Origin: Nitratireductor sp. XY-223 | GTDB taxonomy: Bacteria > Pseudomonadota > Alphaproteobacteria > Rhizobiales > Rhizobiaceae | Length of the DNA: 64,000 nt | Assembly: GCF_004959855.1 (NCBI RefSeq) | Contig: NZ_SPNT01000003.1 | Coordinates: forward strand, 186,001 to 250,000 | Direction: 5' to 3' | Notes under the pieces: model-generated | The model's database searches: none | What the model saw: the letters and a program-made list of their open reading frames with translations, nothing else | Told to the model about the DNA's origin: nothing | Program-made: the position numbers and the translations under genes | Part shown: piece by piece, positions 5,940 to 64,000 of the stretch | Layout: each line of letters opens with the position of its first letter | How positions within the stretch are numbered: the stretch's first letter is position 1

Positions 5940-6676
5940 CCGTGCTCCCGCGCCACGGCATACCGGCGCGCCGCATCGAGCAGACCGGATACTTCCGCGT
6001 CGTCGATGTCCAGCGCCGCCAGCTTGTCTGCAAGGTTCTCGATATATTCAAGGCTCGAGCCGAGGACGCCTTCTCCGGTGGCGATGTAGCGGACCTGCTC
6101 CTCATGCGTCAGGTCGCTGCGGATGCGGCTGGCATCATGGTTGGCAACAAAGGTGACGGCCTTGAGGGGCCCTTCGTCGGAAACGGCGTCCACAAAGGCC
6201 GCGATATAGACCCCCGTCGCCATTTCGCGGCGCCACAGGATGGCCGTTTCTTCCTCGATGCGATCGCTATCGATGCGGAAGACCAGGCCGGTGCAGCCCG
6301 GCCCCTCATCGAGCGCGGCCATCAGTCCCGGCGCTTCGCGCGTGCCGCGCGCGCCGAGTTCGTCCTTCAGGCAGAACGCCCGTGCATAGCCGCCGACATG
6401 GGCCTTGCGCACCTCGACGAAGTCAAAGCCCGGGTCCCACATCAGCGAGCCGTATGCGAACACCCACAGTTCGCCGTCGGGCCGCCCGGCAAGCACGCGC
6501 CTGCGCATCGCCTCGCGCTCCTCGTCGCTCAGCCGCCAGTGCGGCGGCAGGCCGAGCGCTTTCATGCGATCGTCGAAATCGGACGGCTTGAAGTTGCGGA
6601 AGAAAGAGTGCTGCGGATCGATGATCTTGCCGCGCAGCTCCGGGTGGTGGGCGAAAGGATCTTTGTCGGCGCTCAT
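5936..6676 (-). CDS. ChaC-type gamma-glutamylcyclotransferase
   Basis: A 246-residue protein of the ChaC family, cytosolic enzymes that cleave the gamma-glutamyl bond of glutathione to give 5-oxoproline and Cys-Gly. The diagnostic VFAYGSLMWDPGF loop binds the substrate. The later GGYARAFCLKDE, CTGLVFRI and VTFVANHDA blocks are also typical. An N-terminal extension of about 70 residues (FFRNFKPSDFDDRMKALG) precedes the core, as in many proteobacterial ChaC proteins. It precedes the MerR-ATPase gene on the same strand with 57 bases between, so the two may be linked in redox control, though this is inference. Confidence 0.88.
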   Translation of the reverse strand: MSADKDPFAHHPELRGKIIDPQHSFFRNFKPSDFDDRMKALGLPPHWRLSDEEREAMRRRVLAGRPDGELWVFAYGSLMWDPGFDFVEVRKAHVGGYARAFCLKDELGARGTREAPGLMAALDEGPGCTGLVFRIDSDRIEEETAILWRREMATGVYIAAFVDAVSDEGPLKAVTFVANHDASRIRSDLTHEEQVRYIATGEGVLGSSLEYIENLADKLAALDIDDAEVSGLLDAARRYAVAREHG

Positions 6677-14099: not shown

Positions 14100-15566
14100 T
14101 TATCCGTGTTTGGCGAGCAGTGAGAGGGTACGGGTTGTCTCGGTGCCGTCGCGGTCCGTCAGCGCAGTCGGGTAGTCGCCGGTGAAACAGGCGTCGCAGA
14201 ACTGCGGGCAGGCACTGTCGCGTCCGGGCTCGTTGACCGCCCTGTAAAGACCGTCGATCGACAGGAAGGCGAGCGAATCCACTTTGATGTAGTCCTTCAT
14301 GTCCTCGATCGACATGCGCGAGGCGAGGAGCTTCGACTTTTCGGGCGTGTCAACGCCGTAGAAACACGAAGCAGCAGTCGGCGGCGAGGCAATGCGCATG
14401 TGCACCTCTGCGGCGCCGGCATCGCGCACCATCTGCACGATTTTCTGGGAGGTGGTGCCGCGCACGATGGAATCGTCGACCAGCACGACCCGCTTGCCCT
14501 CGATGGCCTTCTGGTTGGCGTTGTGCTTGAGCTTGACGCCCATGTGGCGGATCGAAGCCGTCGGCTGGATGAACGTCCGCCCGACATAGTGGTTGCGGAT
14601 GATGCCGAGATCGAAGGGCAGGCCCGCCTGCTGTGCGAAGCCGATGGCCGCGGGCGTTCCGGAATCGGGCACCGGCACGACCATGTCCGCGTCGACCGGG
14701 CTTTCCTTGGCCAGCTGCTCGCCGATCATCTTGCGGGTCTCGTAGACGTTCCGCCCCTCGAGGTTGGAATCCGGGCGGGCGAAGTAGACGTATTCGAAAA
14801 TGCAGAAGCGCGGTTTCAGTTCGCCCCACGGGAAATAGCTGCGCAGCCCGTCATTGGTGATGACCAGGACTTCGCCCGGCTTTATGTCGCGCACGTAGTG
14901 GGCGCCGATAATATCGAGAGCGCAGGTCTCGGAGGCCAGGATATAGGCGCCGTCCAAGTCGCCGAGGATGAGCGGGCGGATACCGAGCGGGTCGCGCGCG
15001 CCGACCATCTTCTTGCCGGAAAGGCCGACCAGCGAAAAGGCGCCCTCGAGCTGTGTGATGGCATCGATGAACTTGTCGATGAACAGTTCCCGCTCGCTCA
15101 TGGCGATCAGGTGAAGCAGGGTCTCCGTGTCGGATGTCGACGAGAAGATGGCGCCGCGTTTCTGGAGCTCCCGCTGCTTGGTCAGCGCATTGGTGATATT
15201 GCCGTTGTGTGAGATAGCGAAACCGCCGCCGGCGAACTCGGCGAAGAACGGCTGGACATTGCGCAGGCCCTCTCCACCGGTGGTCGAATAGCGGGTGTGG
15301 CCGATCGCCCGGCTGCCCGGCAGGCGCGCCAGCACGGAGGGTTTGGTGAACGTGTCGCCGATCAGGCCGACATGCCGCTCGACGGAGAACTGGCTGCCGT
15401 CATAGGAGACGATGCCGGCGGCTTCCTGTCCGCGATGCTGAAGCGCATGCAGGCCGAGCGTGACGACCGCCGCTGCGTCGGCCTTGCCGAATATCCCGAA
15501 GACGCCGCATTCGTCGCGAAAGGCGTCGGCTTCGCCGTCAAGATCGGTGCTGGTGAGTTCTGTCAC
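14100..15566 (-). CDS. purF: Amidophosphoribosyltransferase
   Basis: A 488-residue glutamine PRPP amidotransferase, the first committed enzyme of purine synthesis: PRPP plus glutamine gives phosphoribosylamine. The N-terminal glutamine amidohydrolase nucleophile is Cys20 (DECGVFGIFG) after a 19-residue leader that would be removed as in the B. subtilis-type enzyme. The C-terminal phosphoribosyltransferase domain has VVLVDDSIVRGTTS. The C-terminal CDACFTGDYP carries the Cys-x-x-Cys pair expected of the Fe-S cluster form. The start is GTG at 15566 with GGAGG nine bases upstream, inside the end of cvpA (29-base overlap). Confidence 0.96.
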   Translation of the reverse strand: MTELTSTDLDGEADAFRDECGVFGIFGKADAAAVVTLGLHALQHRGQEAAGIVSYDGSQFSVERHVGLIGDTFTKPSVLARLPGSRAIGHTRYSTTGGEGLRNVQPFFAEFAGGGFAISHNGNITNALTKQRELQKRGAIFSSTSDTETLLHLIAMSERELFIDKFIDAITQLEGAFSLVGLSGKKMVGARDPLGIRPLILGDLDGAYILASETCALDIIGAHYVRDIKPGEVLVITNDGLRSYFPWGELKPRFCIFEYVYFARPDSNLEGRNVYETRKMIGEQLAKESPVDADMVVPVPDSGTPAAIGFAQQAGLPFDLGIIRNHYVGRTFIQPTASIRHMGVKLKHNANQKAIEGKRVVLVDDSIVRGTTSQKIVQMVRDAGAAEVHMRIASPPTAASCFYGVDTPEKSKLLASRMSIEDMKDYIKVDSLAFLSIDGLYRAVNEPGRDSACPQFCDACFTGDYPTALTDRDGTETTRTLSLLAKHG

Positions 15567-57931: not shown

Positions 57932-60607
57932 ATGTTTGACCTGTTGGTGCCGGCCCTGCTGCTGGCGGCGCTGCTGATCGTCGGACCTATTCTGGGAACC
58001 ATCGCGTTTTTCAAGGTGCGGTCGCTGCGGCGCGAGGTCGACGAGCTGCGTGCCCGGCTTGCGGGGCCGGTGCCGGAAATTTCCGCTGCGACATCGGTGC
58101 CGTCCGTCAAGCGCCCGTCCGAAAGACCGGAACCTCTAGAGTCCGAGGCGGAAGCCGGCGCAACGGAACCGTCAGCGACGCCCGCGCCCGACGACGCCGG
58201 AGAGGGGGGCGAGCAGCAACAGCCGCCCGCTGCAGCCCCGGGCAGGGCCGGTGGCGGATTGGAGGAAACGGTCGGCGCCAAGTGGGCGGTCTGGGTTGGT
58301 GGTCTCGCACTGGCGCTCGGGGCCGTGTTTCTGGTGCGATATACCATCGAGCAGGGCCTTCTCGGACCGGGTGCCCGGATAATCGCCGGATTGCTGTTCT
58401 CGGCGGCCTTGTGCGCCATTGGCGAGTGGACGCGCCGGCGCGGCGCTGCTTTTTCCGTCGGCGGATTTGAGAGTGCCAATATTCCCGCGATCCTGACGGC
58501 GGCGGGAACGCTGGGTGCCTTCGCGTCTATCTACGCGGCCTACCAGCTTTACGGATTCCTTGCCTCCGCGACGGCCTTTGTTGCGCTCGGTCTTGTTGCG
58601 GTGGCCACGATGGTTGCCGCACTGCTGCACGGCCCGTTGCTCGCCGCCCTCGGCATCATCGGCAGCTATCTCGTCCCGTTCCTCGTCAGCTCGCAGGAGC
58701 CGAACACGGCGGGCCTCGGCCTTTATGCCTTTGCCGTCTCGGTCGCGGCATTCGGCGTCGGGCGCCTGCGTCTGTGGCGCTGGCTGGCGGTGATAGCGGC
58801 GCTCGGCCTGGTGTTTTTCGGAGCCGTGCTGTTCGTCCTCGCATCGGCCGGGGAACGGCCGATCGTCGGGATTTACGTTCTCGCTGCCTGGGCGGCCATC
58901 TTCTACGTGTTCGTCTACAGCCTCTATGAACGGTCGGTGTCCGAACGGACGGCCAACGACCGGGTCGCCGTCTTGATGCTGTCCGCCGCGCTCCTGCTGG
59001 CGCTGGGGTTCGTGTTGGCCGAAACGGACGCCGCCACCGTCGTCGGGCTGCTGTTGCTGGTCTTCGTTCCCTTCGTTTCCGCCTTCTACTATTCCGCCGT
59101 CCGGTTCATCGTGCCGGTTGCCGGCATCATGGTCGTGGTCGGCTATGCGGGTTGGGATCTGTCGAGCGAGAGCTGGGCGCCCCTGGCCAACGGCTTCGAT
59201 GCGCTCGATCCGGTCGATCCTAACATCCTGCCCGGCTATCAGCAGAAGGCGTTGTCGCTCTTCGGCCTCCTCGGCTTTGCGGTTGCATTGCTGGCTGCCG
59301 CGACGGGCTTCCTTGGCGCCATGCGCTCCGCCGCACGTGTTCCGCTCGCCTTTGGCGGTGCCTTCGTTCCGGTCCTCGTCCTGGCGGTCTGCTACGCCCG
59401 CACGGACTTCCTCGATGTCTCGGTGCGCTTCGGTTCCCTTGCCCTGATTTTGAGTGTCGCTTTCTATTTTGCAGCCCTGTTCGCCGATCGCCGGCTTTCG
59501 GACCGGGATGACGGCCAGACAGGCGTGACGGCCAACTACCTGATCGCGGCGCTGTCGGCCCTGACGCTGTGCCTCTGCATGCTCCTTGAGCAGGGCGTGC
59601 TCACGGTCGCGCTTGCGCTGATGTCGCCGGCAACGGCCTATGTCTACAGCCGGCGCCCCCTTGCGGCGCTGCGGCCGCTGACGCTTGTCCCGGCGGTCCT
59701 GTGGGCCGCGCGCATCGCCTGGGACCCGGCGGTCGTTGGCGCTGACCTCGGCGATATGCCGGTCTTCAACTGGCTGCTCTACGGATATGGCGTACCGGCG
59801 GCCGGCTTCGCGGCCGCCGCCTGGTTGCTCGGCCGCCATGGCCGTGACCGCTGGCTGGAGGCCATGGAAGCCGTTGCCGTCGCGGTGGCAACGGCGGCAG
59901 TCGCGCTCATCGGCCTGCACGCACTCGACCCGGATTCGGTGTTCACGCCCATCGAAACACTGCCCGAGGCGGCAATGCTGGCGCTCGTCGGCGGGGGAGT
60001 GGCGCTCGGTCTCCTGCAGTTGAAGCTGACTGAGACAAGTGCGACGCTGCGCACTGCAGCCGATGTACTCGGCTATGCCGGAATGGTCGTCGCGGTGCTG
60101 GGCCTGCTGGTCGTCTTCAATCCGCTGCTGACCGGCGAAGCCATCGGGTCCGCGGCGATATTCAACAAACTTACGTTCAGCTATCTGCTGACCGGTCTGC
60201 TTTACGGAGCGCTCGGCTATCGCAGTTCTGCGCAGCGGCCCGCCTATTCGAGGGCCGCATACGCGCTGAGCGGTGTGCTGTTCTTTGCCTGGGTCAGCCT
60301 TTCCATCCGCCATTGGTTCCATCCGGTGGCTCTGAATGTCGGGCCGACCGGGGACCCCGAACTCTACACCTATTCGGCAGCGTGGCTGGCCATCGGCATC
60401 GCAATCCTCGCCGCCGGGATGGCAAGCGGTGTCAGGATGCTGCGGCTGTTGTCGGGCCTCATCATCGTGGCCGTGGTGGCCAAGGTGTTTGTTGTCGATA
60501 TGTCCAGCCTGACGGGTTTTCTGCGGGCTCTGTCGTTTATCGGTCTCGGCGCCGTGCTGGTCGCCGTCGGCCTCGTCTACCAAAGGCTGCTGCGCAGGCA
60601 GGCATAG
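57932..60607 (+). CDS. DUF2339 family large membrane protein
   Basis: An 891-residue protein with one N-terminal helix, a Pro/Glu/Ala-rich linker (about 40-115), a short basic coil region and then more than 20 predicted transmembrane segments from 115 to the end. The entry sequence GAKWAVWVGGLALALGAVFLVRYTIEQGLLGPG is typical of DUF2339. Function unknown. A 5-codon open frame (57922-57939) with a good ribosome site overlaps its start and might tune initiation. Confidence 0.85.
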   Translation: MFDLLVPALLLAALLIVGPILGTIAFFKVRSLRREVDELRARLAGPVPEISAATSVPSVKRPSERPEPLESEAEAGATEPSATPAPDDAGEGGEQQQPPAAAPGRAGGGLEETVGAKWAVWVGGLALALGAVFLVRYTIEQGLLGPGARIIAGLLFSAALCAIGEWTRRRGAAFSVGGFESANIPAILTAAGTLGAFASIYAAYQLYGFLASATAFVALGLVAVATMVAALLHGPLLAALGIIGSYLVPFLVSSQEPNTAGLGLYAFAVSVAAFGVGRLRLWRWLAVIAALGLVFFGAVLFVLASAGERPIVGIYVLAAWAAIFYVFVYSLYERSVSERTANDRVAVLMLSAALLLALGFVLAETDAATVVGLLLLVFVPFVSAFYYSAVRFIVPVAGIMVVVGYAGWDLSSESWAPLANGFDALDPVDPNILPGYQQKALSLFGLLGFAVALLAAATGFLGAMRSAARVPLAFGGAFVPVLVLAVCYARTDFLDVSVRFGSLALILSVAFYFAALFADRRLSDRDDGQTGVTANYLIAALSALTLCLCMLLEQGVLTVALALMSPATAYVYSRRPLAALRPLTLVPAVLWAARIAWDPAVVGADLGDMPVFNWLLYGYGVPAAGFAAAAWLLGRHGRDRWLEAMEAVAVAVATAAVALIGLHALDPDSVFTPIETLPEAAMLALVGGGVALGLLQLKLTETSATLRTAADVLGYAGMVVAVLGLLVVFNPLLTGEAIGSAAIFNKLTFSYLLTGLLYGALGYRSSAQRPAYSRAAYALSGVLFFAWVSLSIRHWFHPVALNVGPTGDPELYTYSAAWLAIGIAILAAGMASGVRMLRLLSGLIIVAVVAKVFVVDMSSLTGFLRALSFIGLGAVLVAVGLVYQRLLRRQA

Positions 60608-60641: not shown

Positions 60642-61193
60642 TCAGACGGGATAGCCTTGCTTCAGGATCAGTCGCCACGCATCGTGGTTGATCTTCTCGA
60701 TCGTGCGAATGGAATTCCGGATCTTTCGTACTTCCGCCGCGTCGAGATCCTGGGTCTTGCCGAATTTGATGTCGCTCTTGGTTTCTGCGATGCGCATCAG
60801 GATCGTCTTCGCGTTCCTTCCCTGGTCATCGAAGGAATACAGGCAGTGATTGTAGCGGTTCTTGTGCTTGAGCACCTTGTGCATGGCGCCGGTCAGCTCA
60901 AGTATTTCATCTTTCGCCGAGGCCTTGACCCGTCCCATCTTGGCAAGCCGGTCGACGAGGTCGAGTCGCGCCCTTGTCGTGTTCAGCGTCAGGAATATGA
61001 CGATGGCCGTTTCCTTGTCGACACCGGCCAGTCCCGCGATGAAGTGAATGAGCAGGGTTTCTGTGTTGGTCCACGAATAGTTCATCTGCCCGACGAGCAG
61101 GAGAATCTCGTGGAATTGCGGCGTTGGCGCAGCCGCTCGGGCTTCGGCCGTCGCGCCGGGATTGCACGGCTCTGGTGGGCGGTCGGGTTTCAT
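60642..61193 (-). CDS. Hypothetical protein coupled to LuxR-type regulator
   Basis: A 183-residue soluble, helical, basic protein I do not recognise. Residues 25-80 (FHEILLLVGQMNYSWTNTETLLIHFIAG) and 100-125 (LELTGAMHKVLKHKNRYNHCLYSF) are the most ordered parts. The latter resembles the (R)NxxxH element of HEPN-like and 'non-processing RNA-binding' helical domains, but too weakly for a call. The start overlaps the LuxR stop by four bases (ATGA), so the two are made together. Confidence 0.7.
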   Translation of the reverse strand: MKPDRPPEPCNPGATAEARAAAPTPQFHEILLLVGQMNYSWTNTETLLIHFIAGLAGVDKETAIVIFLTLNTTRARLDLVDRLAKMGRVKASAKDEILELTGAMHKVLKHKNRYNHCLYSFDDQGRNAKTILMRIAETKSDIKFGKTQDLDAAEVRKIRNSIRTIEKINHDAWRLILKQGYPV

Positions 61194-61927
61194 CGGGCCG
61201 GCTGCCCGCTGCCGGCACCGTCGGCGAATTCTTCGAAATAGATCGCCGCTGCCTCGGTCCTGTTGCTAACACCCAGTTTCGCGATGATGTTGTGCATGTG
61301 CAGCTTCACCGTGTGCTGCGACAGGTTCAGTTCCGCTGCGACGATCTTGTTCTGGCAGCCCCGTGCAACGAGCGCGAGCACGTCGATTTCCCTGGCCGTC
61401 AGCTTCGCTCCGGTGCCGGGATTGCCGCTATGCCGGTGACCGCCGCCATTGACGTGATCGCCGGAATGTCCGTTGACCTGTTTTTGCTTGCCGCTGGCCT
61501 TCAGGAATTCCGGCGGCATGTAATCGCCGCCATTGATCATCAGCTGGACCGCGGACAACCAGATGTCGAGGCGCAGGTTCATTGGCAGGAAACTGCGCAC
61601 TGTGCCGTCAAGGGCCAGTTTGCGCGCGCTGTCCGGAAGCGTCTCGTACTGGTTGAACGCCATGCAAATGACCTGCGTCGGAAACACCCGGCGCAGCCTG
61701 CCAAAGGCGTCTGCCACGTGCTCGCACAGCGTTTCGTCAACAACAAGCAGAACAGCCCGATGTTTCAAGTCTTCAATGCTGTGAAACACGTCCTGGAAGT
61801 CGTTTTTCTTGACGACATCCAGTTCTTCCAGTTCTTCCACCAGCGCTTTTGCCAAACACTGGGCAAATTTCTGTTGCGGGCCGATATAGATCACGGCACG
61901 CAAGTATTCCTGAACTGCTGTACCCAT
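61190..61927 (-). CDS. LuxR/CsgD-like transcriptional regulator
   Basis: A 245-residue regulator. The N-terminal 125 residues look like a degenerate response-regulator receiver (RAVIYIGPQQKFAQCLAKAL ... AVLLVVDE) without the normal acidic pocket and phospho-Asp. A Gly/His/Asn-rich linker follows (about 145-170). The C-terminal LuxR helix-turn-helix is complete (LTAREIDVLALVARGCQNKIVAAELNLSQHTVKLHMHNIIAKLGVSNR). This layout matches CsgD-type biofilm regulators. It is divergent from the low-complexity protein gene across a 705-base AT-rich region. Confidence 0.85.
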   Translation of the reverse strand: MGTAVQEYLRAVIYIGPQQKFAQCLAKALVEELEELDVVKKNDFQDVFHSIEDLKHRAVLLVVDETLCEHVADAFGRLRRVFPTQVICMAFNQYETLPDSARKLALDGTVRSFLPMNLRLDIWLSAVQLMINGGDYMPPEFLKASGKQKQVNGHSGDHVNGGGHRHSGNPGTGAKLTAREIDVLALVARGCQNKIVAAELNLSQHTVKLHMHNIIAKLGVSNRTEAAAIYFEEFADGAGSGQPAR

Positions 61928-62632
61928 CGCTACCCCCGTGAGGAGGTCCCAGACCGGATAGGCTGTATCGGAGGCGTTTTGCTCGGCAAAGCATCACCGC
62001 CTCGCTGCAATTATTGAATGTTATCCACATTTTCCACAGGCGTATATAGATCATTCGATATATCTGCCTTTACTCGGCTGGAAAACGGTAACATACTGTT
62101 TGGCTTGTTTATTTTACGTGTTGTTTCGGGTTGCATTTCGCCGGGCCGGTGCCCGGGCGCCGAAATTCGGCCCGGAATACATAATTCGATCAGGTAAAAC
62201 TGACTAATTTCTTGGATTGATGCCAAAAGATAACAATACGAATTCATTTCAGATTCGTCTAAATATTGAAATAAAAGAAATTTTTGATTGCTTTCGAGTA
62301 TTTTGACAGTAGTTCTGAGCTAGTAGCAATTATCAGCTTATCAGCCCGCTCATTTCTTCTAAGAATATAAATTGCCGCAACGGGCGGGAATTCTAAGTCA
62401 AGAACAGTGTCACGAACGACGACTGGCGACGTGTCGCCATTTGTCGGAGCGGGCCTGTCTGCGCTGTCCTGCACCCGGCGGTTGTGTGCAACGAAGCAAA
62501 AAGGAGCAGTTCGAACGGGAAGACCGGGACGCATTACGCGACCGGCCTTCCGGATTTCAACGCAAGCAGCCGAGTACCGCTTTGTAGAAGAATGGCGGTG
62601 AGGCTGTCCTTCATTCATGTGAGGACAAACTC
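61928..62632. other. Long AT-rich intergenic region
   Basis: A 705-base divergent promoter region between the LuxR-like gene and the low-complexity protein gene. The stretch 62040-62400 is the most AT-rich part of the window's right end. It contains tandem DnaA-type boxes near its left end. Short open frames on both strands have no ribosome sites and uneven codon use, so I call no gene. Confidence 0.7.
62021..62038 (+). promoter_or_regulatory. Tandem DnaA-type boxes
   Basis: TTATCCACA (62021-62029), a perfect consensus DnaA box, is directly followed head to tail by TTTTCCACA (62030-62038). They lie about 95 bases upstream of the LuxR-like gene at the edge of AT-rich DNA. Confidence 0.5.
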
Positions 62633-63601
62633 ATGTCTGGAAAGAGAAACACAGCATACGACTGGAATGACAACCACGATTATCGCGACAAGGATTCCGG
62701 CGGCCATAAGGGCGGCAGGAAAAAGGGCGATGACAAGGACGGCAAGGACTATGGCGGCGGCCACGGCGGCCACGGCGATGGCAAGGACCACGACAAGGAC
62801 ATTGACATCGACATCCACGCCAAGCTGAAAGGTCAGGCGCAACTTCAGGGTCAGGGCCAGTTCCAGGCTCAGGTTCAGAAGAGCGTCAACAAGAACGACA
62901 ACGACAACAGCAACTACAACAAGAATGTAAACATCAACAAGTCCGAGAGCACGGCCACGGCGACTGCCAACGTGAACATGGACGGCGTGCTTCCGGAAAA
63001 AGACAATGATGGCGTCGACATCGATCTTTCCAAGGGTGTCAAGGTCGAGAACCTCCTCGTAAGCCAGAAGGGCGACATCGACTACAACCCGGGCAACGAT
63101 GTGTCGTTTGAAGACATCCTCAACAAGTCCCTGGACGGCAAAGGCAACGACACGGGAATCGTGTTCAGCCAGAGCAACTCGCTTGAGGACAACGACTACA
63201 TCAAAGATCCCGATGTCACCAACATGGGCAGCGGTGGCTTCAAGATTACCGGCAATGCCAAGGGCGGCAAGGCGTCCTCGGACGACGGTATCGACGCCGG
63301 CGGTAATGGCGGCGATGGCGGTGGCCACCCGTACTACTACTACAGAAAGCCGTACCACAAGAACGAAGAAGGCGCCGGTGGTGACGGTGGCGCAGGTGGT
63401 ACGTGGGGATCCAACAACAAGGATGACGGTTTCGTCGAAGGGATCTCAAGTGCAACGGCAGACGGCATCATCAATGCCGAGGCATTCAACCAGACCCTCG
63501 TCCAGGGTGCCAATGTTCTTGGCAACACGGTCGACATGACGGTGGTTGGCGGTGATTACACCCAGACCATGACCGGCGAAGACGCCGACGGTACGGCCTA
63601 A
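62633..63601 (+). CDS. Asp/Asn/Gly/Gln-rich low-complexity protein, possible surface or matrix protein
   Basis: A 322-residue protein without cysteines or an N-terminal signal peptide. Residues 1-60 are Asp/Lys/His/Gly-rich (GGHGGHGDGKDHDKDIDIDI). Residues 62-83 alternate Gln or Gly with hydrophobic residues (KGQAQLQGQGQFQAQVQK), an amyloid-like beta pattern. Residues 84-117 are Asn/Asp-rich. Middle segments look like short beta repeats. Residues 200-265 are Gly-rich with a YYYY run (234-237). The C-terminus is acidic (TMTGEDADGTA), as in type I secreted proteins. ATG 62633 has GAGGA seven bases upstream. The function is unknown; a secreted biofilm or adhesive protein controlled by the divergent CsgD-like regulator is my inference. 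Confidence 0.75.
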   Translation: MSGKRNTAYDWNDNHDYRDKDSGGHKGGRKKGDDKDGKDYGGGHGGHGDGKDHDKDIDIDIHAKLKGQAQLQGQGQFQAQVQKSVNKNDNDNSNYNKNVNINKSESTATATANVNMDGVLPEKDNDGVDIDLSKGVKVENLLVSQKGDIDYNPGNDVSFEDILNKSLDGKGNDTGIVFSQSNSLEDNDYIKDPDVTNMGSGGFKITGNAKGGKASSDDGIDAGGNGGDGGGHPYYYYRKPYHKNEEGAGGDGGAGGTWGSNNKDDGFVEGISSATADGIINAEAFNQTLVQGANVLGNTVDMTVVGGDYTQTMTGEDADGTA

Positions 63602-63617
63602 TTACTCCCAGGACCAA

Positions 63618-63644
63618 GGAGCCGGGCGGGTTTCGCCCGGCTCC
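63618..63644 (+). terminator. Hairpin after the low-complexity protein gene
   Basis: GGAGCCGGGCG (63618-63628), 5-base loop, CGCCCGGCTCC (63634-63644), then TCACTT, 16 bases after the stop. Eleven perfect pairs make a strong terminator-like hairpin, although the U tract is poor. Confidence 0.7.
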
Positions 63645-63739
63645 TCACTTCCCAAAAGCAGGCGCGCGACAGGCAGTTCGAACGATCTTGAAACATCAAA
63701 CGCGGCAATTCGGTTCAGTCGGGAGGCGCGTGCGGACCA

Positions 63740-64000
63740 ATGGATCAAGTCACAGAGATCATCGCGCACTTTATCGGTGTATTTAACATAACAGTAGAGC
63801 AGCAGCGGGCGCGTATCGATTACGACTCGTTCGTTGCGACAAAGAACAATCTGGAGCACGAGGAGGACCTTCCTTCTTCGGGGCACCGGTTCAAGGAAAA
63901 CCACGTTCACAAGGATTTTGACCCCCATGTGAGCTACAAGCCGGGGTCCCACTACCTGGAAACCGTCGATGTTCCGCGGCTGTATGACGGATTGTATCTT
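63740..64000 (+). CDS. Unrecognised protein, N-terminal part (runs off the window)
   Basis: An open frame from ATG 63740 to the window edge encodes at least 87 residues: MDQVTEIIAHFIGVFNITVEQ, then an acidic and His-rich stretch (EHEEDLPSSGHRFKENHVHKDFDPHV), then YKPGSHYLETVDVPRLYDGLYL. GGGAGG lies 13 bases upstream, which is a little far. I do not recognise it. It follows the low-complexity protein on the same strand across a strong hairpin, so it may be a separate transcript of the same locus. Confidence 0.55.
   Translation, partial: MDQVTEIIAHFIGVFNITVEQQRARIDYDSFVATKNNLEHEEDLPSSGHRFKENHVHKDFDPHVSYKPGSHYLETVDVPRLYDGLYL

What the first reader, a model, noticed from the sequence alone, without database searches (positions are those of the whole stretch)
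60642..64000. Possible undescribed surface/biofilm locus: CsgD-like regulator, coupled unknown, low-complexity Q/N/D-rich protein
A LuxR-type regulator with a degenerate receiver is translationally coupled to an unknown helical protein and divergent, over 705 bases of AT-rich DNA, from a 322-residue protein with an alternating Gln/hydrophobic segment (residues 62-83), Asn/Asp-rich and Gly-rich blocks and no cysteine. This composition resembles functional amyloids or type I-secreted matrix proteins, and CsgD is the classic regulator of curli. Another unknown gene follows. The link between regulator and protein is inferred from position only.
Basis: partly seen in the sequence, partly recalled or inferred. 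Interest (0 to 1): 0.75.

Follow-up and report, generated by a model that had tools for sequence, protein, structure and literature searches.

The report
Undescribed type I-secreted matrix protein system
The flagged genes are the first part of a six-gene block, shared by many soil and marine bacteria, that appears to export two unusual proteins, one of them usually packed with glutamines and asparagines, probably to build a surface coat or fibre; neither the export nor the fibre has been tested.

Summary
The module is HEL-LUX divergent from QND-P650-ABC-HlyD. Of 65 named P650 loci with enough flank, 65 hold HEL, QND, ABC and HlyD, and 43 also LUX. In 297 genomes drawn from the family, HEL and P650 occur in exactly the same 66. 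The module recurs in Rhodobacterales. HEL, QND and P650 match no Pfam or NCBIfam family above its cut-off.

The window's QND is a reduced form. Most aligned relatives have long (xQ)n and (xN)n tracts, a Gly-rich block and a conserved C-terminus. P650 has five homologous, beta-rich units. Best reading: a type I system exporting two extracellular matrix proteins, possibly a functional amyloid. Export is inferred; amyloid, biofilm and regulation are untested. It is not curli: no CsgG, no curlin repeats above chance, LUX far below the CsgD cut-off. The constant partner is HEL, not the regulator.

The parts
60642..61193 (-). HEL, 183-aa helical protein of an unnamed family; present in exactly the genomes that have P650
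61190..61927 (-). LUX, LuxR/GerE-type regulator with a degenerate receiver-like half; overlaps HEL by ATGA
61928..62632 (.). 705-bp AT-rich divergent intergenic region; no sigma-70 promoter or terminator pattern and no long conserved block with three relatives
62633..63601 (+). QND, 322-aa low-complexity protein, a reduced member of a family with alternating Gln/Asn tracts and a Gly-rich block; presumed exported
63740..64000 (+). start of P650 (650 aa, five beta-rich units), which runs to L002:6692; ABC exporter (L002:6707-8863) and HlyD adaptor (L002:8870-10207) follow outside the window (L002 position = window position - 59000)

Best explanation
The locus is a dedicated PrtD/HlyD type I secretion module for two extracellular proteins. 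QND has, in most relatives, alternating Gln and Asn tracts, a Gly-rich block and a conserved C-terminus; P650 has a conserved N-terminal helix and five beta-rich units. ABC and HlyD would use a TolC encoded elsewhere. Outside the cell QND most likely polymerises or gels into a matrix or fibre, with P650 as anchor, nucleator or partner. LUX is the likely local regulator where it is present. HEL is a cytosolic partner that the system seems to need, most likely a post-transcriptional regulator or a substrate-handling factor. Shown: gene content, order, conservation, co-occurrence, exporter families, repeats, composition. Inferred: export of QND and P650, polymerisation, regulation, HEL's role.
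For: Exporter families above cut-off (TIGR01842 687.8 of 510.15 bits, TIGR01843 381.6 of 208.65); two TolC-type proteins above cut-off elsewhere in the genome. In 65 of 65 complete named loci QND and P650 stand next to ABC and HlyD. HEL and P650 in the same 66 of 297 genomes. Profiles of single P650 units find other units, with 1 reversed decoy hit over five profiles; beta-rich model. 48 of 60 P650 end in an acidic-then-hydrophobic tail, by a pattern I wrote after seeing them. 32 of the 32 ORFs with 30 or more Q+N in 80 residues, out of 686, are QND. Exporter core at least 73% identical in 78 of 78 ABC ORFs against 24-52% for P650 and QND: constant machine, changing cargo. Polysaccharide genes adjoin it on two Sulfitobacter plasmids.
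Against: No secretion, fibre or biofilm was observed. QND ends lack an acidic-hydrophobic tail. The window's own QND has only 22 Q+N in 80 residues, and 6 of 25 aligned QND are below 30; 7 of 25 have no alternating Gln run of 6. Fold search of P650 gives no significant match; its two best of 16, CsgA (E 0.24) and FapC (E 0.64), have TM-score 0.04 and prob 0.01 and prove nothing. P650 units and QND are not shown to be related. LUX is missing near 22 of 65 complete loci.
Confidence: 0.62

Rival explanations
1. The secreted proteins make a non-amyloid coat or soluble adhesin (surface layer, metal-binding or carbohydrate-binding matrix protein); the Q/N tracts are flexible linkers or spacers.
For: Conserved D-x-D motifs after each Q in P650; no significant fold match to amyloids; Q/N tracts vary greatly and are weak in several relatives.
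Against: Strict alternation of up to 25 Gln and 34 Asn in relatives is odd for a mere linker.
Confidence: 0.22
2. Contact-dependent toxin system of the Cdz type: QND and/or P650 act on neighbouring cells from the surface and HEL is the immunity protein.
For: Type I exporter, two secreted proteins and one obligatory small partner, as in Cdz (PMC5380434, passages); HEL-P650 co-occurrence is complete in 297 genomes.
Against: CdzC/D are about 85 aa and CdzI is a small transmembrane protein; P650 is about 640-710 aa, QND mostly 300-1000 aa, and HEL shows no membrane segment by eye. HEL is the slowest-changing of the three unknowns, unlike typical immunity proteins (general knowledge).
Confidence: 0.1
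3. QND stays inside the cell as a condensate-forming protein; only P650 is exported.
For: QND's C-terminus lacks the acidic-hydrophobic end seen in most P650.
Against: QND is the first gene of the exporter operon in the 65 complete loci; no cysteine in 20 of 25, usual for type I cargo (general knowledge).
Confidence: 0.05

Closest known systems
PrtD/PrtE-type type I secretion (rhizobial PrsDE class, name recalled)
   Same: ABC and HlyD adaptor pass the NCBIfam cut-offs TIGR01842 and TIGR01843; TolC unlinked
   Different: Two cargo families without Pfam or NCBIfam match; Gly/Asp-rich N-terminal extension of about 160 aa on the ABC; obligatory HEL gene
Curli (CsgA/B, CsgD, CsgEFG)
   Same: LuxR-type regulator, divergent operons, Q/N-rich candidate subunit and a second repeat protein
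   Different: No CsgG in the genome, curlin repeats not above shuffles, type I export instead of Sec plus CsgG; LUX below the CsgD cut-off. PMC3521004 (passages) says Alphaproteobacteria with curli lack csgD
Fap functional amyloid of Pseudomonas
   Same: Repeat protein with Q/N positions; FapC is among the non-significant fold hits of P650
   Different: Fap genes were not searched for; exporter here is type I
Cdz system of Caulobacter
   Same: Alphaproteobacterial type I system with two secreted, aggregation-prone proteins; PMC5380434 passages
   Different: Cargo size, Gly-zipper peptides with leader-like N-termini, transmembrane immunity protein
BapA of Paracoccus denitrificans
   Same: Type I-dependent surface adhesin needed for biofilm (PMC13235738, passages); a P. 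denitrificans record also carries P650
   Different: BapA's sequence was not compared here; recalled as a much larger protein. Its own paper was seen only as a citation

Membership tests
PrtD-type type I secretion system | ABC exporter of the PrtD subfamily | tested here: met
   TIGR01842 687.8 bits, cut-off 510.15
PrtD-type type I secretion system | HlyD-type periplasmic adaptor | tested here: met
   TIGR01843 381.6 bits, cut-off 208.65
PrtD-type type I secretion system | TolC-type outer membrane channel in the genome | tested here: met
   two proteins above the TIGR01844 cut-off on other contigs
PrtD-type type I secretion system | cargo with C-terminal secretion signal | tested here: inconclusive
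   48 of 60 P650 match a tail pattern written after seeing them; QND tails do not look alike; export not assayed
CsgD | NCBIfam equivalog model NF007505 | tested here: not met
   38.4 bits against a cut-off of 250
Curli | CsgG secretion channel | tested here: not met
   PF03783: no match in the window's genome; found in 4 of 14 control genomes
Curli | curlin repeats (X6QXGX2NX10, from PMC3521004) | tested here: not met
   11 in 25 QND (0.44 each, shuffled 0.47) and 2 in 28 P650 (0.07 each, shuffled 0.09)
RTX adhesins/toxins | RTX nonapeptide repeats | tested here: not met
   no RTX family among Pfam hits of the window QND, the window genome's P650 or 60 P650; other QND copies not scanned
Functional amyloid (any) | cross-beta fibre with dye binding and SDS resistance | not testable with these tools
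   composition and repeats only
[quoted passage not shown]
   cargo sizes; definition from passages of PMC5380434
HEPN superfamily (considered for HEL) | R-x4-6-H motif (recalled) and HEPN fold | tested here: inconclusive
   R-N-x3-H: N and H invariant, R in at least 90% of 51; no HEPN family among Pfam hits; no significant fold match
Fap | FapF porin and FapC/FapB repeats | not tested
   no search made for Fap genes

The most novel reading that the evidence does not exclude
A further, so far undescribed route of functional-amyloid biogenesis: a type I exporter delivers a Q/N-alternating, polar-zipper subunit (QND) and a beta-rich five-unit partner (P650) straight to the outside, with a dedicated cytosolic RNA- or substrate-handling factor (HEL), across Rhizobiaceae-level bacteria and Rhodobacterales.
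Probability: 0.36. Interest if true: 0.86.

Novelty: new variant of a known kind. Interest (0 to 1): 0.69.

Why it matters
If right, many rhizobia (Sinorhizobium/Ensifer, Mesorhizobium, Neorhizobium) and marine Rhodobacterales share a matrix or fibre system built from three protein families that Pfam and NCBIfam do not name. It would make testable how a type I machine handles an aggregation-prone protein and whether alternating Q/N tracts form fibres outside the cell. It also gives a handle on HEL, a conserved protein without recognised relatives that goes where the system goes.

Tried and rejected
Rejected: curli membership; CsgD membership; RTX adhesin; HAD-like hits of HEL in Pfam and NCBIfam (E 0.0081 and 0.0011, far below the cut-offs). 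HEPN for HEL is left open. A shared origin of P650 units and QND was not established: hhalign probability 4.8%, and no unit profile hit QND at i-E 0.01. Promoter and terminator scan of the intergenic region: nothing found. Alignment of the intergenic region with three relatives: no long conserved block. Foldseek against the PDB for both models: no match at E 0.001. Sequence search of the PDB: HEL profile best E 0.42, P650 profile none at E 1; QND was not searched there. PADLOC: only weak hits of the LUX HTH. Papers: ten answered searches listed none that I recognised as describing this locus. I saw listings, plus passages of PMC5380434, PMC3521004, PMC13235738 and PMC9399729. The library holds open-licence papers only.

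Fisher's test ignores relatedness. QND's 61 of 297 came from one low-complexity query: it misses 7 of the 66 P650 genomes and adds two weak ones (E about 6e-4). In the class draw HEL has one partial match in a genome without P650.
Full report
What is there. The features of the finding are in the sequence at the stated places. HEL (60642-61193, -) and LUX (61190-61927, -) overlap by ATGA; 705 bp separate LUX from QND (62633-63601, +), and the AT-rich dip lies in this gap. QND has no cysteine and a strict alternating run of eight glutamines from residue 68; 0 of 20000 shuffles reached eight, the maximum being four.

Beyond the window. The window is G000:C33:186001-250000. Reading on (L002 position = window position - 59000), the 'other unknown' from 63740 is a 650-aa protein, P650. 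It is followed 14 bp later by a PrtD-type ABC exporter (TIGR01842, 687.8 bits, cut-off 510.15) and then an HlyD adaptor (TIGR01843, 381.6 bits, cut-off 208.65). Two TolC-type proteins above the cut-off lie on other contigs. The unit is HEL-LUX divergent from QND-P650-ABC-HlyD.

Conservation by locus. Of the 65 loci with at least 5.2 kb before and 4.5 kb after P650, 65 hold HEL, QND, ABC and HlyD, 61 have a HEL on the opposite strand, 43 have LUX and 38 have LUX touching HEL; the 17 complete Rhodobacterales loci have all six genes. Thirteen loci cut by contig ends were left out; over all 78 the numbers are ABC 78, HlyD 78, QND 74, HEL 70, LUX 46. One of the cut loci, L167 (Paracoccus), has HEL and LUX behind HlyD instead.

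Conservation by genome. These loci were selected by P650, so the fairer test is genome-wide. In the same 297 genomes drawn from the family, HEL and P650 were searched separately and occur in exactly the same 66 genomes; in 60 of the 66 the two best places lie on one contig with starts within 6.2 kb, in 6 on different contigs. Within the genus 2 of 8 genomes have P650. In 385 genomes drawn from the class P650 occurs in 2 and HEL in 3, the window's genome included in both; the extra HEL match is partial. Of 72,556 plasmid records 32 carry a P650 relative, among them Ensifer, Sinorhizobium, Paracoccus and Sulfitobacter. That the window's genome belongs to Rhizobiaceae in the broad sense is my inference from such relatives; the organism was not identified.

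QND. In Rhizobiales loci 47 of 54 QND ORFs have 500-740 aa (four of the other seven are cut by contig ends); in Rhodobacterales they reach 1005 aa. Typical members begin with (xQ)n, up to 25 Gln in strict alternation, then (xN)n, up to 34 Asn, then a V-D-V segment, a conserved block (DDDFADID, DILN, DND), a Gly-rich block and a conserved C-terminus near NQSIVMGANLQGNTVDMTVVGG. Of 25 aligned members 18 have an alternating Gln run of at least 6, 20 an alternating Asn run of at least 6, 19 reach 30 Q+N in 80 residues and 20 lack cysteine; of 686 ORFs of 250 aa or more in the first set of loci, 32 reach 30 Q+N in 80 residues and all 32 are QND by profile. The window's copy (22 Q+N in 80) is a reduced form that lacks most of the Gly-rich block; other short forms occur in L079, L103 and L105, and two tandem short copies in L083.

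P650. It has a conserved N-terminal helix, a variable linker, five homologous units and mostly an end such as DVMQTMLA. A profile of unit 1 finds unit 3 in 55, unit 4 in 53, unit 5 in 33 and unit 2 in 5 of 60 proteins, with no hit among 60 reversed decoys; the unit-3 profile hits one decoy. AlphaFold gives a beta-rich model, mean pLDDT 76, 65-98 per ten-residue block over the units. It was made from the Oricola relative L154, 43% identical to the window genome's P650. Foldseek has no significant match; its two best of 16, CsgA and FapC, have E 0.24 and 0.64 and TM-score 0.04, which proves nothing. I see no Sec signal in P650 or QND (by eye).

HEL. It is the best conserved of the three unknowns: 50% mean column identity over 51 sequences in two orders, against 36% for P650 and 30% for QND. 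It stays when LUX is missing, or moves behind HlyD (Nitratireductor and related loci). AlphaFold: helices plus a small sheet, pLDDT 85; no relative by fold or PDB sequence and no Pfam family matched by more than 5 of 51 members even at E 0.1. R-N-x3-H recalls HEPN RNases, which no tool confirmed. I read HEL as a cytosolic factor for making or handling the cargo; this is inference.

Mechanism. Shown: gene set, conservation, exporter type, repeats, composition. Inferred: LUX controls the divergent operon where present; HEL acts on the message or the new cargo; ABC-HlyD-TolC moves P650 and QND out in one step; QND assembles through its Q/N tracts with P650 as partner. Polysaccharide genes next to it in two Sulfitobacter plasmids fit a matrix role. 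The ABC core is at least 73% identical to the window genome's in 78 of 78 ORFs, while P650 and QND relatives are 24-52% identical to its copies: a constant machine with changing cargo, as expected for surface proteins.

Relation to known systems. The exporter is an ordinary PrtD-type type I system. The locus is not curli (no CsgG; curlin repeats not above chance; CsgD model far below cut-off), shows no RTX repeats in what was scanned, and differs from Cdz in cargo size and immunity gene. It may still work like curli or Cdz. Ten paper searches in the open-licence library listed no description that I recognised.

Verdict. A real, widespread and apparently undescribed module: a known export machine with new cargo and a new constant partner. 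Amyloid and biofilm roles are plausible and untested.

Noticed in passing
window 57932-60607 (+): 891-aa predicted membrane protein of family DUF2339 (PF10101, 331.9 bits), convergent with HEL; not part of the module in relatives as far as seen.
   Followed up: no
L062 14998-17106 (Sulfitobacter sp. W074 plasmid): P650 is annotated there as 'type I secretion protein ATPase', which it is not.
   Followed up: partly
L002 6707-7186, N-terminus of the ABC exporter: About 160 residues rich in Gly and Asp precede the PrtD core; the 78 relatives also have extensions (56-525 aa by longest ORF), so it may be a cargo- or HEL-binding part.
   Followed up: partly
L137, L139, L141, L142, L147, L155 (Nitratireductor, Aquamicrobium and related): HEL has moved behind HlyD, on the operon strand, and no LUX is found beside QND in the five of these loci that hold a QND.
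   Followed up: partly
L109 (Ensifer aridi) 6117-6599 and 14740-15246: Two HEL copies flank one module.
   Followed up: no
genomes G267 and G325: Two P650 copies per genome; in G267 the second scores far lower (492.8 against 891.8 bits) and has a HEL on the same contig.
   Followed up: no
Sulfitobacter indolifex and Sulfitobacter sp. W074 plasmids (H15/H16, H20/H21): P650 lies on two plasmids of the same strain, in two strains; polysaccharide genes adjoin the copies looked at.
   Followed up: partly
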